Positions 29,694 through 34,691 of a DNA stretch of 52,518 nucleotides are shown here, piece by piece (the first letter of the stretch is position 1; each line of letters starts with the position of its first letter). This DNA is from Rheinheimera sp. (GTDB lineage Bacteria > Pseudomonadota > Gammaproteobacteria > Enterobacterales > Alteromonadaceae). The stretch is taken from positions 1 through 52,518 of the forward strand of contig SSFI01000017.1 of assembly GCA_008015325.1 (NCBI GenBank), read 5' to 3'. The notes beneath the pieces are model-generated. The model was not told where the DNA came from. It saw only the letters and a program-made list of their open reading frames with translations, and made no database searches. The position numbers and the translations under genes are program-made.

Positions 29694-31463
29694 TTATAAA
29701 CCAGGGTTATCCAAAGCCGTCAGCCCGGCAAACTCATCTGGCTGGCGTTTGGGTAATAACTTCAGCGCATCCGGCAGCGTCGGATAAAACGACAATAAAC
29801 CGTCAATAGGCCGTACTTTAGCTTTGGCCAGAGTTTTCAGCACCTGAAATTGCAGGTCAACCAACATCACATGACAATCGGTTTTTGCACTCGCGGTGAG
29901 GAATTTATCAAAAGCGGCCAGACCACCGGCGTCTAATAATGTCACGCCGTCCATCAGGATCACCACTTGTTGCTGCTCTTTGCATAACAGCGCAAGCTCG
30001 GCAAAAACCCGGTCCGCTGCAGCAAAAAACAACGGCCCGCTGATGCGAAACACCTTATGGCCCGGTGCCAGTTTTTCGCTGACCAGCTTCGGATTTTCTG
30101 TGACATCGGCGACTTTGGTCATCTCGGCCACTTCGCGCACAAACAGCAGCGCCGCGATGATAATGCCGCAGCTGATGGCAATTACCATGTCAAACAACAC
30201 GGTAAAAGAGAAACACACGGCAAACACCAGCACGTCGCTGCGCGGCGCAGTGTTAATCAGATGCAGTGCTTTGGGCGCTTCGCTCATATTCCAGGCCACC
30301 ACCAGCAATAAGGCCGCCATACCGGCTAATGGTAGGTAACTGAGCACAGGCGCCAGGGCAAACAAGGCCAGCAACACCACAGCAGCATGTACCATGGCTG
30401 CAACCGGCGACACAGCGCCAGCCCGTACGTTGGCTGCTGAGCGCGCCAGTGCCGCCGTCGCGGTAATACCGCCAAAAAAGGGCGCCACTATGTTGCCGAT
30501 GCCCTGCCCCAGCAGCTCACTGTTGGCACTGTGACGCCGGCCTGTCATACCATCCAGCACCATGGCACAGAGCAAAGACTCAATAGCGCCGAGCATCGCC
30601 ATGGCAAAAGCGGCTGTCAGTAAATCTTTGACCAGCTCAGAGCTCCACTGCAGCGGTTGGCCGTCGGCGCCGGGTAAATCCCAGGGCCACTGCAGGCTGG
30701 GTAGCATATCCGGAATACCGGCGGCAACACTGCCATCAGCCGCTGTGTACTGAAAACGGCTGCCGATCGTTTCCACCGGATAACCAAAATGATTCAGTGC
30801 CAGGGCCAGCAAAGTGGCCGCAATCACTGCCGGTAAATGCGGTGGGATACGGCTACCCAGTTTAGGCCAGACCAGCATCAGCCACAGAGTCACGCCGGCT
30901 ACGACCATCGCCGGCCAATGTGCTGTGTCCGCCGCTTGTAACAGCACCTGCAGCTTTTCCAGATAATGTTCGGGCATGCTGGCAACACTGAGGCCAAATA
31001 AATCGCGCAGCTGTAATGTGGCAATCACTACGGCAATACCGGCAGTGAAGCCCAGGGTGACGGCTTCGGGGATATATTGAATAAAACGCCCCAGCCGTAA
31101 CATCGCCATTGCGACCAAAATGGCACCGGACAGCACTGTCGCCAGCAACAAACCACTTAAGCCATATTTCTGTACGACCGGATATAAAATAACGATAAAA
31201 GCAGCCGTCGGGCCTGAGACGCTGTAGCGGGAACCGCCACAAAGTGGAATCAAAAAGCCGGCGATAATAGCGGTATACAAACCATATTGTGGCGGAACAC
31301 CAGAAGCAATGGCCAGCGCCATCGCCAGCGGGATGGCAATAATGCCAACACTGATCCCAGCCAGAATGTCTTTGCTGAGCGCCGGAAAACCATAACCTTC
31401 AGCGGCAGCTTCGCGCAGCGCATGAAAAATCCGTAACGAGAACAAATGAGCACGGTGCGACAT
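29694..31463 (-). CDS. dauA: DauA-type SulP/SLC26 transporter (C4-dicarboxylates)
   Basis: A 589-residue inner-membrane anion transporter with a C-terminal STAS domain. It follows E. coli DauA (YchM) closely along its length: IAIPLAMALAI, GGSRYSVSGPTAAF, SMAMLGAIESLLC-type and MVLDGMTGRRHSANSELLGQ, and GGITATAALARSAANVRAGA. The STAS domain (about 440-560) has ILMDGVTLLDAGGLAAFDKF. E. coli DauA takes up succinate and other C4-dicarboxylates at acid pH. The same substrate is inferred here. GAGG precedes the ATG. Confidence 0.9.
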   Translation of the reverse strand: MSHRAHLFSLRIFHALREAAAEGYGFPALSKDILAGISVGIIAIPLAMALAIASGVPPQYGLYTAIIAGFLIPLCGGSRYSVSGPTAAFIVILYPVVQKYGLSGLLLATVLSGAILVAMAMLRLGRFIQYIPEAVTLGFTAGIAVVIATLQLRDLFGLSVASMPEHYLEKLQVLLQAADTAHWPAMVVAGVTLWLMLVWPKLGSRIPPHLPAVIAATLLALALNHFGYPVETIGSRFQYTAADGSVAAGIPDMLPSLQWPWDLPGADGQPLQWSSELVKDLLTAAFAMAMLGAIESLLCAMVLDGMTGRRHSANSELLGQGIGNIVAPFFGGITATAALARSAANVRAGAVSPVAAMVHAAVVLLALFALAPVLSYLPLAGMAALLLVVAWNMSEAPKALHLINTAPRSDVLVFAVCFSFTVLFDMVIAISCGIIIAALLFVREVAEMTKVADVTENPKLVSEKLAPGHKVFRISGPLFFAAADRVFAELALLCKEQQQVVILMDGVTLLDAGGLAAFDKFLTASAKTDCHVMLVDLQFQVLKTLAKAKVRPIDGLLSFYPTLPDALKLLPKRQPDEFAGLTALDNPGL

Positions 31464-31505
31464 CAGACGACCTCACCACAGTAAAACTCTATTGTAGGGA
31501 TAAAA

Positions 31506-32114
31506 TCAGGGCGCGAGGAACTTGTTTTGGATTTTCTGCAAGATTTTCCAGCGGTTAGGGTCGAGGAGTAGAGAGCATATGCATAAGTCAAACATAAACT
31601 TAAGAACCTGCTTAATTTCTCCCTGGTGACTTGAAATCAATGGTGGGCTCTTGTCATAAAAATCTTGGTCGAACACGAACATTAAATATTCAATCGACTG
31701 AAGGCAGGACACAAAAGACGATACAGCTAGCATCAGAGCCATTAAGTAAACTTGTGGTACATGCTCTGGATTTTCAACTCGAAACCATTTAAACATTCGA
31801 CTGTCGTTATGATATATGACAAGACAAAACGCCATTAATAGGTCAATAAACGCTGATGCAAGATAATACATAATGGTGTCAAGTTGGGGGAGGACGTACG
31901 CTATTGGCAGTGCAATTAGCTTAACAGCTACGATCAACAAAAGAATGGGGAGATTGTGCCGTCTATTCAATGAAAACAACGCTACAAGCAACACAATCGT
32001 AAATGATGTAGCAATTACAGCAAATGAATTCTCTCTCCAGTGAATGCTTGCCGCCAGAGTAAGTAGACATAAGATTCCGGCGGCAAAATCAACAAAGCTA
32101 TTTGACTGTTTCAA
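31506..32114 (-). CDS. Unknown multi-span membrane protein beside the double-glycine peptide
   Basis: I do not recognise this 202-residue protein. About six membrane segments are visible: residues near 9-27, 31-49, 55-75, 82-100, 122-148 and 172-185. It starts with TTG at 32114, with AAGGAG 13 bases upstream and an AGTTC-GAACT hairpin between. It begins 28 bases after the stop of the double-glycine peptide and should share its transcript. Bacteriocin immunity proteins are often small multi-span proteins encoded just after the precursor, so immunity is the leading inference; a role in export or processing is possible. Base composition is AT-rich compared with neighbours, suggesting transfer. 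Confidence 0.6.
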   Translation of the reverse strand: MKQSNSFVDFAAGILCLLTLAASIHWRENSFAVIATSFTIVLLVALFSLNRRHNLPILLLIVAVKLIALPIAYVLPQLDTIMYYLASAFIDLLMAFCLVIYHNDSRMFKWFRVENPEHVPQVYLMALMLAVSSFVSCLQSIEYLMFVFDQDFYDKSPPLISSHQGEIKQVLKFMFDLCICSLLLDPNRWKILQKIQNKFLAP

Positions 32115-32142
32115 AAGTTCTGTCGAACTCCTTCAGTGTTTA

Positions 32143-32349
32143 TTATTTTTTTACCCACCAGTCTTTAGCAGGTTCACCGTTATCGTGGATTGAAAAAGTG
32201 CCTACAGCCACATCGTCCACATTCAGAGAAAAGCCACCACTGACCTGGGTCAGTTCAGCTGTGTTCAGTTCAACCAGCTCAGCAGTTTGCTCTTGTTTAG
32301 ATACTGGAAACAGCACTGCGAACACTTTTGATTTTGCATTGAATTTCAT
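32143..32349 (-). CDS. Double-glycine leader peptide (bacteriocin/secreted-peptide precursor)
   Basis: A 68-residue peptide. Residues 1-39 look like a double-glycine leader: MKFNAKSKVFAVLFPVSKQE, then TAELVELNTAELTQVSGG with conserved Glu/Leu spacing before Gly-Gly. Cleavage after Gly-Gly by a C39 peptidase-containing ABC transporter would release a core of about 29-30 residues ending in DWWVKK. The core has no Cys, so no disulfide or lanthionine, and is acidic-to-neutral with aromatic residues at the end. AAGGGA stands 10 bases before the ATG and a strong promoter lies upstream. No transporter gene is nearby, so export would need one elsewhere. Antibacterial or signalling action is inferred only. 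Confidence 0.75.
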   Translation of the reverse strand: MKFNAKSKVFAVLFPVSKQEQTAELVELNTAELTQVSGGFSLNVDDVAVGTFSIHDNGEPAKDWWVKK

Positions 32350-32406
32350 AATGAGTAAATCCCTTAACTGTAAAGATTATTTTAGTTTGGATGTTGGATT
32401 CCCCTG

Positions 32407-32427
32407 GCCTGATCCAGCAGATCAGGC
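32407..32427 (-). promoter_or_regulatory. Hairpin at the 5' end of the peptide mRNA
   Basis: GCCTGATC (32407-32414) and GATCAGGC (32420-32427) form a perfect 8-bp stem with a 5-base loop. It coincides with the predicted transcription start near 32425, so it is either a 5'-end mRNA-stabilising stem or an operator. Confidence 0.55.
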
Positions 32428-32431
32428 GGGA

Positions 32432-32460
32432 ACAATATGAATTTGCAAACGCAATGCCAA
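32432..32460 (-). promoter_or_regulatory. Promoter of the double-glycine peptide gene
   Basis: On the minus strand TTGGCA (32455-32460) and TATTGT (32432-32437) are 17 bases apart. The predicted leader is about 75 bases long. Confidence 0.65.
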
Positions 32461-32638
32461 ATGCGAAGCTGCAGATAAATATTATTTTTATTGTTAAAAT
32501 ACAATAATTTAAGAACGCACCTCAGATCTATCCGGTTTAAAATACTGATCCGCAACAGCAGATCCGACCTGATGCGGCGAGAAATTTCCGCCGGCACAGA
32601 GCGGGTTTGCCACCGTTTGCCGCTCCGTAGGCGTCAAG

Positions 32639-32675
32639 ATTTTGTCGTTTTATGATGCTGCGACAAAATGTCGCA
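32639..32675. promoter_or_regulatory. RegA/PrrA-type palindromes upstream of regB
   Basis: TGCGACA-AAA-TGTCGCA at 32659-32675 is a perfect 7-bp dyad and fits the GCGNC-N5-GNCGC pattern described for RegA/PrrA family sites. A second dyad, ATTTTGTCG (32639-32647) with CGACAAAAT (32661-32669), overlaps it. The first is centred about 44 bases before the start predicted from TATAGT at 32699-32704, a usual activator position. Autoregulation by RegA is inferred. Confidence 0.5.
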
Positions 32676-32785
32676 TGCCATTAAAGTCTTACCGTCGTTA
32701 TAGTGATGTCCGACTCAGCACATCAATGCAGGCCCGTGACTTTGGTGCAGCAACTGCGTAGTCTGTTGGTGTCAGTTTTTTGCAA

Positions 32786-32810
32786 CGGGCGCACTGCGCC
32801 CGCTTTTTTT
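32786..32810 (+). terminator. Intrinsic terminator inside the regB leader
   Basis: CGGGCGC (32786-32792) and GCGCCCG (32796-32802) with a 3-base loop are followed by C and seven T. It ends only 10 bases before the regB start. It must either be an attenuator or end a separate short RNA of about 100 bases begun near 32711. Otherwise 32350-32820 has no gene. Confidence 0.75.
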
Positions 32811-32820
32811 GAGATCCGCT

Positions 32821-34158
32821 ATGCTGCCAAACCGATCCACCTTCAGCGCCGACTCAGATCCATTCCAACAAATCAAACAATTACAGCAATTTCGCTGGGG
32901 CTTAATCGGAACCAGCTATCTGGCGGCACTGGCTGCCTGGTGGGTGCAATATCCGGTCAGCAGCTGGCCTTTAATGCTACTACTGCTGGCTTTATATGGC
33001 TGCACCAACTTGTCGCTGCCCTGGTTGCCAGGGGCCCGGCTGAAACCGCAGCGCGTCTTTGCATTGGCCGTTTTGTACGATCTGACGTTGTTGACCCTGA
33101 TGCTGGCGTTGGCAGGCGGTGCTGGTAATGGATTGATTGCATTGCTGTTATTGCCGGTTGCTGTCAGCGCGGTGTTGCTGCCTGGCCGTATCGCTCTGCT
33201 GAGCGCAGCGCTGGCAGTCAGTTGTTACCTGCTGCTGGCACTGCTGTTACCGCTCAATCCGGTTGACCCGCAAACCGGCCAATTGATTTATGACCCGCAT
33301 GCGGTACATGGCAGCCATCAGGTGTTTATTGATGCTGCCACGCCCGCTGAGCTGCTGCCCGCACAGTTCAGCTCTCATTTATGGCAAATGGCCTGGGCTT
33401 TCGCGCTGTCAGCATTTTTCATTGCCGCTTTTGTCAGTGCACAAGCAAGGCTAGTACGGCAGAAATCCCGCGAACTGCAACAGTTACAACAACAACAGTG
33501 GCAACAGGAACAAATGCTGACGGTCGCCACTTATGCGGCCAACGCCGCCCATGAATTGGCCACGCCGCTGCAAAATCTGACGTTATTAACCGATGAGCTG
33601 AATGATGGCCCGCCAGACCAGGCGTTGCTGCGAGACCTGCAGCAGGAAGTACAGCGCTGTCAGCTGATAGTGCAGCAACTGCGGCAGAATGCGCAGCAAT
33701 TGCGCCAGCCACAGCGGCAGACTCCGCTGCATCAGGTCGCCCGACAGGCGCTGCAACTCTGGTTAGTCAGTCGGCCGGAGGTGAGCCTGGATTTAAGCGA
33801 ACAGCTTGATGACAGCCAATGTCTGGTTGCCGATACGCTGGCCTGGTCCGCCGCCCTGTTTAATATTCTGGATAATGCCGCAGACGCCGGTAGTGCGGTG
33901 CAACAGCCCCGCCTGACAGTCAGGCTCAGTCAGCAGCGTCAGCTGTTTATCTTGCAAATCGAAGATTTCGGCAGCGGTGTGCCGGCAACACAATTGCGCG
34001 AATTGGGCAAAGTGCCGCAGCCCAGCCCGGAGGGTTTAGGCCTCGGGCAATTCCTCGCCAATAGCAGTATTGAACGGCTGGGTGGAACGGTGACACGAAG
34101 TCCAAGCCCATCTGGCGGCCTGATCAGCCAAATCCGCTTTCCGGCAGGAGGCCACTGA
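32821..34158 (+). CDS. regB: Redox-sensing histidine kinase, RegB/PrrB family
   Basis: A 445-residue membrane kinase. Six hydrophobic segments fill residues about 25-210, with GGAGN (99-103) in the place of the quinone-site GGxxN motif of RegB. The H box is AAHELATPLQN (His244), and the ATPase part has NILDNAADAG and GLGLGQFLA. The redox-active Cys of RegB has a likely counterpart at C280 (VQRCQLIV), 36 residues after the His. It probably senses the respiratory quinone pool or oxygen and passes phosphate to the next gene. The ATG at 32821 is preferred over the TTG at 32809. Its stop overlaps the regA start. Confidence 0.88.
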   Translation: MLPNRSTFSADSDPFQQIKQLQQFRWGLIGTSYLAALAAWWVQYPVSSWPLMLLLLALYGCTNLSLPWLPGARLKPQRVFALAVLYDLTLLTLMLALAGGAGNGLIALLLLPVAVSAVLLPGRIALLSAALAVSCYLLLALLLPLNPVDPQTGQLIYDPHAVHGSHQVFIDAATPAELLPAQFSSHLWQMAWAFALSAFFIAAFVSAQARLVRQKSRELQQLQQQQWQQEQMLTVATYAANAAHELATPLQNLTLLTDELNDGPPDQALLRDLQQEVQRCQLIVQQLRQNAQQLRQPQRQTPLHQVARQALQLWLVSRPEVSLDLSEQLDDSQCLVADTLAWSAALFNILDNAADAGSAVQQPRLTVRLSQQRQLFILQIEDFGSGVPATQLRELGKVPQPSPEGLGLGQFLANSSIERLGGTVTRSPSPSGGLISQIRFPAGGH

Positions 34159-34691
34159 TGAAACTGACGATTTTAGATGACGATGCGATTTTACTCCGCA
34201 CCTTGCAGCGTCGTCTGACTGCGGTCGGTCATCAGGTTCAAATTTTTGCCACGCCGCCGGCGCTGGCAGATCTGTTGGCAGAGCCGGCAGACGTCTGGCT
34301 GCTTGATTTGCGGTATGGTGACGTGTCGGGGCTGAACTATGTAGCACCACTGCGCCAGGCGTTGCCTGCTTGCCGCATTCTGGTACTGACCGGCTTTGCC
34401 AGCATCGCTACGGCGGTACAGGCAGTCAAACTGGGCGCCGACGACTATCTGACAAAACCGGTGGACTTCGCGGTGTTATTGCAGGCAATACAAGGCGATA
34501 ACGCCGCCGCGCTGGCAAATGAGCTAAATAGCAACGACAGCGAAGCTTTGTTATCGACAGACCAAATCGAATGGGAACATATCCAGCGCGTGCTGGCACA
34601 ACAGGATGGCAATATCAGTCAGACCGCACGGTTACTGGGGATGCACCGACGCACCTTACAGCGCAAGCTGCTGAAACACAGACCCGGCTGA
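34158..34691 (+). CDS. regA: Response regulator, RegA/PrrA/ActR family
   Basis: A 177-residue regulator. The receiver domain has the acidic LDDDA start, phospho-acceptor D50 (WLLDLRYGD), LTGFASIATAVQA and YLTKP. A short linker leads to a Fis-type helix-turn-helix (ISQTARLLGMHRRTLQRKL), nearly the same as in RegA/PrrA. Members activate photosynthesis, respiration, carbon and nitrogen genes under low oxygen; the targets here are unknown. Overlapping start and stop with regB (ATGA) shows coupling. Confidence 0.92.
   Translation: MKLTILDDDAILLRTLQRRLTAVGHQVQIFATPPALADLLAEPADVWLLDLRYGDVSGLNYVAPLRQALPACRILVLTGFASIATAVQAVKLGADDYLTKPVDFAVLLQAIQGDNAAALANELNSNDSEALLSTDQIEWEHIQRVLAQQDGNISQTARLLGMHRRTLQRKLLKHRPG

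What the first reader, a model, noticed from the sequence alone, without database searches (positions are those of the whole stretch)
31506..32349. Orphan double-glycine peptide with adjacent unknown membrane protein: candidate bacteriocin/immunity or signalling cassette
Directly seen: a 68-residue ORF with a textbook double-glycine leader (ELNTAELTQVSGG), a cysteine-free core of about 29 residues ending DWWVKK, a strong ribosome site and promoter, then a six-span membrane protein 28 bases later. Known: such leaders are cut by C39-peptidase ABC exporters, and immunity genes often follow the precursor. Inference: this is a minimal class II microcin-like or peptide-signal unit using an exporter encoded elsewhere. 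AT-rich composition against a GC-richer core genome suggests acquisition.
Basis: partly seen in the sequence, partly recalled or inferred. Interest (0 to 1): 0.8.

Follow-up and report, generated by a model that had tools for sequence, protein, structure and literature searches.

The report
Peptide and membrane-protein gene pair
This is a real two-gene unit in a Rheinheimera-type bacterium: a small export-type peptide and an unclassified six-helix membrane protein that occur together, probably a secreted competition or recognition peptide with its own immunity or receptor protein.

Summary
Window 32143-32349(-) encodes a 68-aa double-glycine precursor; 28 bases on, 31506-32114(-) encodes a 202-aa protein modelled with six membrane helices. 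Relatives show the pair is real: 14 of 14 accepted loci of the membrane protein have a small ORF directly upstream (one cut by a contig end), 12 of 14 with GG. It is found in 10 of 22 genus genomes (one subclade, 9 shown at the same site before a SulP gene) and three times in one genome of another genus, once inside a Mu-like prophage. The genome has one C39 exporter with a HlyD partner, on another contig.

New here: the 10 main-site cassettes all carry a sigma-54-type -24/-12 signature 95-109 bases before the start codon; a 16-base element at the start codon is cassette-specific (9 of 10). Against simple export: three cassette genomes have no detected C39 domain; in two the peptide stays conserved with GG, in the third GG became GK.

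Best reading: a sigma-54-controlled short secreted peptide with its cognate membrane protein, immunity slightly more likely than receptor. It does not meet the full class II microcin profile. New variant of a known kind.

The parts
32143..32349 (-). precursor peptide gene, 68 aa; leader codons 1-39 (32233-32349), core codons 40-68 (32146-32232)
   Evidence: purifying selection on the coding sequence
31506..32114 (-). 202-aa six-helix membrane protein, TTG start, 28 bases downstream of the peptide stop
   Evidence: model; no family over its cut-off in Pfam, NCBIfam or PADLOC
32444..32460 (-). sigma-54-type -24/-12 promoter signature TTGGC-N7-TTGCA, its GC 96 bases before the peptide ATG; the same kind of site in 10 of 10 main-site cassettes
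   Evidence: only match of YTGGCN7TTGCW in the window, 1.7 expected by chance; the looser TGGCN7TTGC has 6 in the window
32351..32366 (-). cassette-specific 5' element TAAGGGATTTACTCAT directly before the start codon, contains the probable ribosome site
   Evidence: one copy each in 9 of 22 genus genomes (7 exact, 2 with one mismatch), all cassette carriers; reversed control pattern 0 matches in 22
32639..32675 (.). overlapping inverted repeats (TGCGACA-TTT-TGTCGCA; ATTTTGTCG-N13-CGACAAAAT), possible enhancer site; suggestive only
29694..31463 (-). flanking SulP permease (sulfate permease plus STAS domains), not part of the unit; used as synteny anchor
32809..34158 (+). flanking divergent histidine kinase (response regulator at 34158-34691), not shown to belong

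Best explanation
A sigma-54-controlled two-gene operon. It makes a short precursor whose leader is cut after Gly-Gly and whose 29-residue core is exported by the genome's single detected C39 ABC exporter with its HlyD partner, encoded on another contig. The six-helix inner-membrane protein is the cognate partner, most likely the immunity protein against the cell's own peptide, so the unit works as a kin-competition (narrow bacteriocin) cassette. Shown: the linked pair, conserved leader and variable core, purifying selection, the promoter signature, presence of the exporter pair. Inferred: export by that exporter, cleavage, promoter use, antibacterial action, immunity.
For: Leader fits C39 substrates (hydrophobic -4, -7, -12, Glu -8; rule recalled). 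The homologue in a prophage passes two curated NCBIfam cut-offs for GG-type peptides (NF033456 24.6 bits, cut-off 24; TIGR01847 17.3, cut-off 15.7). Own genome has one C39 match, in an ABC protein with the Cys box beside a HlyD protein; a crude scan found no GG peptide beside it, though its contig ends about 60 bases past the HlyD gene. 6 of 6 cassette genomes with type A/B peptides carry such an exporter (own; 94-96%; 61-62% identical). The pair is together in 14 of 14 accepted loci. Leader against core identity: 95 and 86% between G000 and G003, 87 and 35% between G000 and G018. First 158 SulP codons 95% identical in DNA but membrane gene 63% between G000 and R. texasensis. One copy carried as an extra gene set in a Mu-like prophage. 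Promoter.
Against: G007, G017 and G019 have the cassette but no C39 match, yet the G017 and G019 peptides are identical and differ little from G011 (dN/dS 0.04), so the peptide is selected without this route. The cassette is kept in every sampled member of its subclade, unlike scattered bacteriocin genes. The core is short (14-29 aa in the Rheinheimera main-site cassettes by my reading of the cleavage sites). The own peptide is below every NCBIfam cut-off. The six related exporters do not form a supported clade, and a 55% identical exporter occurs in G012, which has no cassette.
Confidence: 0.42

Rival explanations
1. Peptide signal and receptor: the exported core is a recognition or density signal and the six-helix protein is its sensor, acting on the cell envelope or on a partner not encoded here.
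For: Kept throughout one sampled subclade; sigma-54-type signature in 10 of 10 main-site cassettes; short cores, 9 of 14 with a Trp/Leu-Pro-Pro/Lys motif seen by eye (not in the window's own core); fast-diverging partner as in lock-and-key pairs.
Against: The membrane protein has no kinase, output or other known domain and no significant structural match (best E 0.49). I saw no response gene shared by all loci in the flanks read.
Confidence: 0.3
2. The peptide acts inside the cell on its membrane partner (regulator, or toxin and antidote), and the GG site is used only in some lineages.
For: Peptide under purifying selection in G017 and G019 without a detected C39 exporter; GG replaced by GK in G007, which also lacks one.
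Against: GG kept in 12 of 14 loci, including G017 and G019; GG-type leader in two genera; exporter present in 6 of 6 type A/B genomes.
Confidence: 0.15
3. The membrane protein itself processes or exports the peptide (an AgrB-like arrangement), so C39 is not needed.
For: It is paired with the peptide in every accepted locus and present where C39 was not found.
Against: Over 13 aligned members only Met1 and Gln121 are invariant and Asp91, Val122, Leu177 and Ser181 nearly so; no conserved Cys or His pair; no sequence or fold match.
Confidence: 0.08

Closest known systems
Class II microcins (GG precursor, immunity protein, C39 ABC exporter, membrane fusion protein, TolC)
   Same: GG-type leader, variable core, linked membrane partner inside the reported immunity size range (51-216 aa, PMC9746304, passages seen), C39 exporter and HlyD in the genome
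   Different: Precursor 68 aa (57-78 in the 10 main-site cassettes) against 75-120 aa for verified ones; long leader with a conserved N-terminal NA(K/Q)S block; core about 14-29 aa; exporter unlinked; sigma-54-type signature; some carriers lack a C39 match
GG peptide pheromones of Gram-positive bacteria (recalled; papers seen as search listing only)
   Same: short core behind a GG leader, C39-type exporter
   Different: no linked histidine-kinase receptor that goes with all loci; partner is a domain-less six-helix protein
NHLP/RiPP export systems (TIGR03796 is the best-scoring NCBIfam family for the exporter, below its cut-off)
   Same: related exporter type
   Different: I noticed no modification enzyme among the ORFs read beside the peptides (flanks mostly 1-1.5 kb); exporter 535 bits against a cut-off of 853

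Membership tests
class II microcin | precursor with GG or GA leader | tested here: met
   homologue L130 over NCBIfam cut-offs; own peptide itself below cut-off
class II microcin | C39 ABC exporter and membrane fusion protein in the genome | tested here: met
   for this genome; C39 not found in 3 of 10 cassette genomes
class II microcin | precursor size of verified members, 75-120 aa (PMC9746304) | tested here: not met
   68 aa; range from passages
class II microcin | cognate immunity protein next to the precursor | tested here: inconclusive
   membrane protein adjacent in 14 of 14 accepted loci, function untested
class II microcin | outer membrane TolC | not tested
   no search made
class II microcin | antibacterial activity | not testable with these tools
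   needs an assay
GG-peptide pheromone with histidine-kinase receptor | linked receptor kinase | tested here: not met
   membrane partner has no domain; a kinase-like gene is the upstream neighbour in some loci, an aspartokinase-type gene in others (by eye)
AgrB-like peptide-processing membrane protease | conserved catalytic Cys and His | tested here: not met
   alignment; the AgrB residues are recalled

The most novel reading that the evidence does not exclude
A sigma-54-switched peptide recognition system of Gram-negative bacteria: a short core peptide (with a Trp/Leu-Pro motif in most types, though not in the window's own) and a previously undescribed six-helix membrane receptor family, kept throughout a Rheinheimera subclade, diversified by allele swapping, carried by a Mu-like prophage elsewhere, and able to function in species that have lost the C39 exporter.
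Probability: 0.25. Interest if true: 0.75.

Novelty: new variant of a known kind. Interest (0 to 1): 0.5.

Why it matters
Double-glycine peptides of Gram-negative bacteria outside the Enterobacterales are little studied (my impression; not surveyed). This gives a family defined by its membrane partner, not by the peptide motif, so its members can be found even where the peptide is too variable to align. Conserved leader, variable core and partner, a sigma-54-type signature, and natural lineages with and without the exporter make export, immunity and recognition directly testable in environmental strains. I found nothing in print on it in the held paper library, by listing only.

Tried and rejected
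Sigma-70 promoter: rejected, site counts at chance. RNA structure in the 5' region: three type A leaders folded, z -1.29, 0.00 and -0.38, no support. Enhancer motif GCGGCAA: present in 10 of 10 upstream stretches of 420 bases, but found by scanning all 7-mers and not checked against coding sequence, so left as suggestive. Plasmid or phage carriage of the sequences tried: no tblastn match in plasmids or phages; in viral contigs 29 and 4 stretches matched a pattern, none was confirmed. Wider spread: class scan, 2 of 369 genomes, the own genome and one weak match. Dropped before counting loci: G513 (E 0.0075) and G043 (E 0.008, 44 residues, stops inside), both taken for chance. Family and class scans scored at most 8 candidates a genome, so their counts are lower bounds; one G065 copy was missed that way and found later. 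Known families of the membrane protein: none over a cut-off; weak stray matches in single members only. Fold: 0 PDB matches at E <= 0.001, best 0.49 to GPCRs at TM 0.28, taken as meaningless; no PDB sequence match. Other NA(K/Q)S leaders in the genus: the pattern hit 18 places in 10 of 22 genomes, 7 of them cassette peptides; the reversed control gave 20 hits in 9 genomes, so the other 11 are at chance level; type B starts are not covered by that pattern. GG ORFs beside C39 exporters: crude scan, one doubtful ORF in R. texasensis (L075:4025-4168, overlapping another gene) and none in the own stretch. Recent acquisition from base composition: rejected.

Full report
WHAT IS THERE. The window is contig C132 of a 3.86-Mb, 139-contig genome. 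The peptide gene (32143-32349, minus) and the membrane gene (31506-32114, minus, TTG start) lie 28 bases apart. They sit between a SulP permease gene and a divergent histidine kinase/response regulator pair.

IS IT REAL. The GG motif alone is not proof: a loose motif scan of the window returns four small ORFs, this one among them. But the peptide has dN/dS 0.04 against R. texasensis over 68 codons. The membrane protein was found in 10 of 22 genus genomes, with 11 loci since G005 has two. In the family scan 11 of 395 genomes matched: those 10 and G065 of another genus, which has three copies. These scans scored at most 8 candidates a genome, so they are lower bounds. I dropped two weak matches, in G043 and G513. 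Each of the 14 accepted loci has a small ORF directly upstream; for the second G005 copy only its end is on the contig. Twelve of 14 have GG at the expected place; L108 has Gly-Ser, G007 has Gly-Lys. Direct peptide homology is narrow: in 60 genomes only the own, G003 and G018 gave good matches; three more genomes, and a second place in the own genome, gave weak ones (E 0.18-0.73).

THE PEPTIDES. Rheinheimera main-site leaders begin MK(F/LF)NA(K/Q)S or MQINAQS and most end in a C39-type site; the cores differ strongly. Type A (G000, G003, G018) ends in DWWVKK or IWIKN. Type B is G005, G020, G013; type C is G011, G017, G019, with G007 as a diverged relative. A Trp/Leu-Pro-Pro/Lys motif occurs in 9 of 14 cores (types B and C, the second G005 copy, two of three G065 peptides); it is absent from type A, G007 and L108. 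That motif is my reading by eye, without a control.

THE MEMBRANE PROTEIN. AlphaFold2 on 3 sequences gives six long helices, mean pLDDT 78.6, pTM 0.72. No family or fold match was found. Across 13 members only Met1 and Gln121 are invariant; Asp91, Val122, Leu177 and Ser181 nearly so.

THE EXPORTER. The own genome has one C39 match, in a 701-aa ABC protein with the Cys box (His/Asp region by eye), next to a HlyD-type adaptor, on contig C91. In R. texasensis the pair lies between a purL-like and an ompW-like gene (names by eye); a crude scan of 19 kb gave one doubtful GG ORF that overlaps another gene. Over the genus 19 of 22 genomes have C39. The six genomes with type A or B peptides have the own exporter or one 94-96% or 61-62% identical to it. 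G011 has only one about 40% identical, of a kind also in three cassette-less genomes. G007, G017 and G019 have none; their listed matches to the exporter begin at residue 141 or later, beyond the C39 domain. The tree does not resolve the six as one clade, and a 55% identical exporter sits in cassette-less G012. So the link of exporter and peptide is suggestive, not proved.

SELECTION AND ALLELES. In type C genomes the peptide is conserved: G017 and G019 identical with pS 0.19; G011 against G017 dN/dS 0.04. Type B peptides diverge more freely (dN/dS 0.65 and 0.53; G011 against G007 0.46). Between G000 and R. texasensis the first 158 SulP codons are 95% identical in DNA with pS 0.19; the peptide has pS 0.54 and the membrane gene is 63% identical with pS 0.79. 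By 60-base steps, the ten windows 31561-32160 are 47-72% identical, while the 16 windows 30601-31560 are 88-100%. On the other side the contrast is weaker: peptide and start region 80-88%, the intergenic stretch 32401-32760 55-77%, the kinase gene 73-95%. I read this as replacement of a local allele; it is an inference. G005 and G013 show the same contrast; G017 and G019 much less. The 9 cassette genomes with a SulP locus form one side of a branch with 100/100 support in a 21-genome SulP tree; G020 gave no SulP match. The 12 others have other genes before SulP.

REGULATION. All 10 main-site cassettes have TGGC-N7-TTGC on the coding strand, its GC 95-109 bases before the peptide ATG. Base-shuffled 450-base upstream stretches give such a site with probability 0.003-0.008 each in the four of ten tested. 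In the window the stricter YTGGC-N7-TTGCW occurs once, here, with 1.7 expected, and the looser form six times, so counts alone mean nothing; position and conservation across diverged backgrounds do. The lineages are related, so the ten are not independent. The -24/-12 rule is recalled knowledge, and I did not look for the sigma-54 gene. Right before the ATG lies TWAGGGATTTACTCAT: one copy in each of 9 of 22 genomes at up to one mismatch, all at cassettes, while the reversed control gave none. G007 has a more diverged form. The three G065 cassettes lack the sigma-54 signature in up to 700 bases and instead follow a helix-turn-helix regulator gene.

MOBILITY. The third G065 copy lies reversed between the Mu F-like and Mu I-like genes of a Mu-like prophage with Mu-type portal and gpT. 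This supports carriage by phage in that genus; the Rheinheimera copy appears stable in place.

READING. I put export plus cognate membrane partner at about 0.7 in all, immunity somewhat above receptor. The main fact against it is the conserved peptide in genomes without a C39 match. Membership in class II microcins is not claimed: size is outside the verified range and activity is untested (PMC9746304, passages seen). Other papers were seen only as search listings.

Noticed in passing
L133:7496-8553 (G065:C24): A helix-turn-helix regulator, GG peptide and membrane protein set sits reversed between Mu F-like and Mu I-like genes of a Mu-like prophage.
   Followed up: yes
L133:4252-4893: A second reversed gene in the same prophage, a 213-aa membrane-like ORF without a NCBIfam match, between terminase and portal genes.
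   Followed up: partly
L021/L109 (G005:C20 end): A second, about 25% identical copy of the membrane protein at a contig end beside transposase-like ORFs (IS66-like by eye, untested); the upstream ORF end reads SGGGTTLPPWPPQDKV.
   Followed up: partly
L053:570-770, L046:2574-2699, L077:1386-1544, L120:314-565: Other GG-type small ORFs near C39 exporter genes in relatives, not part of this cassette; L053 looks by eye like a classical microcin-type precursor.
   Followed up: no
window 31506-32114 and its nine main-site orthologues: With the starts I chose, all 10 membrane genes begin with GTG or TTG, 6-29 bases after the peptide stop; in G018 an upstream ATG in frame is also possible. This suggests coupled, lower translation.
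   Followed up: partly
window 32809-34691: Divergent histidine kinase with a PilS-like membrane domain match and a Fis-type response regulator; whether it controls the cassette is open, since some loci have another neighbour.
   Followed up: no
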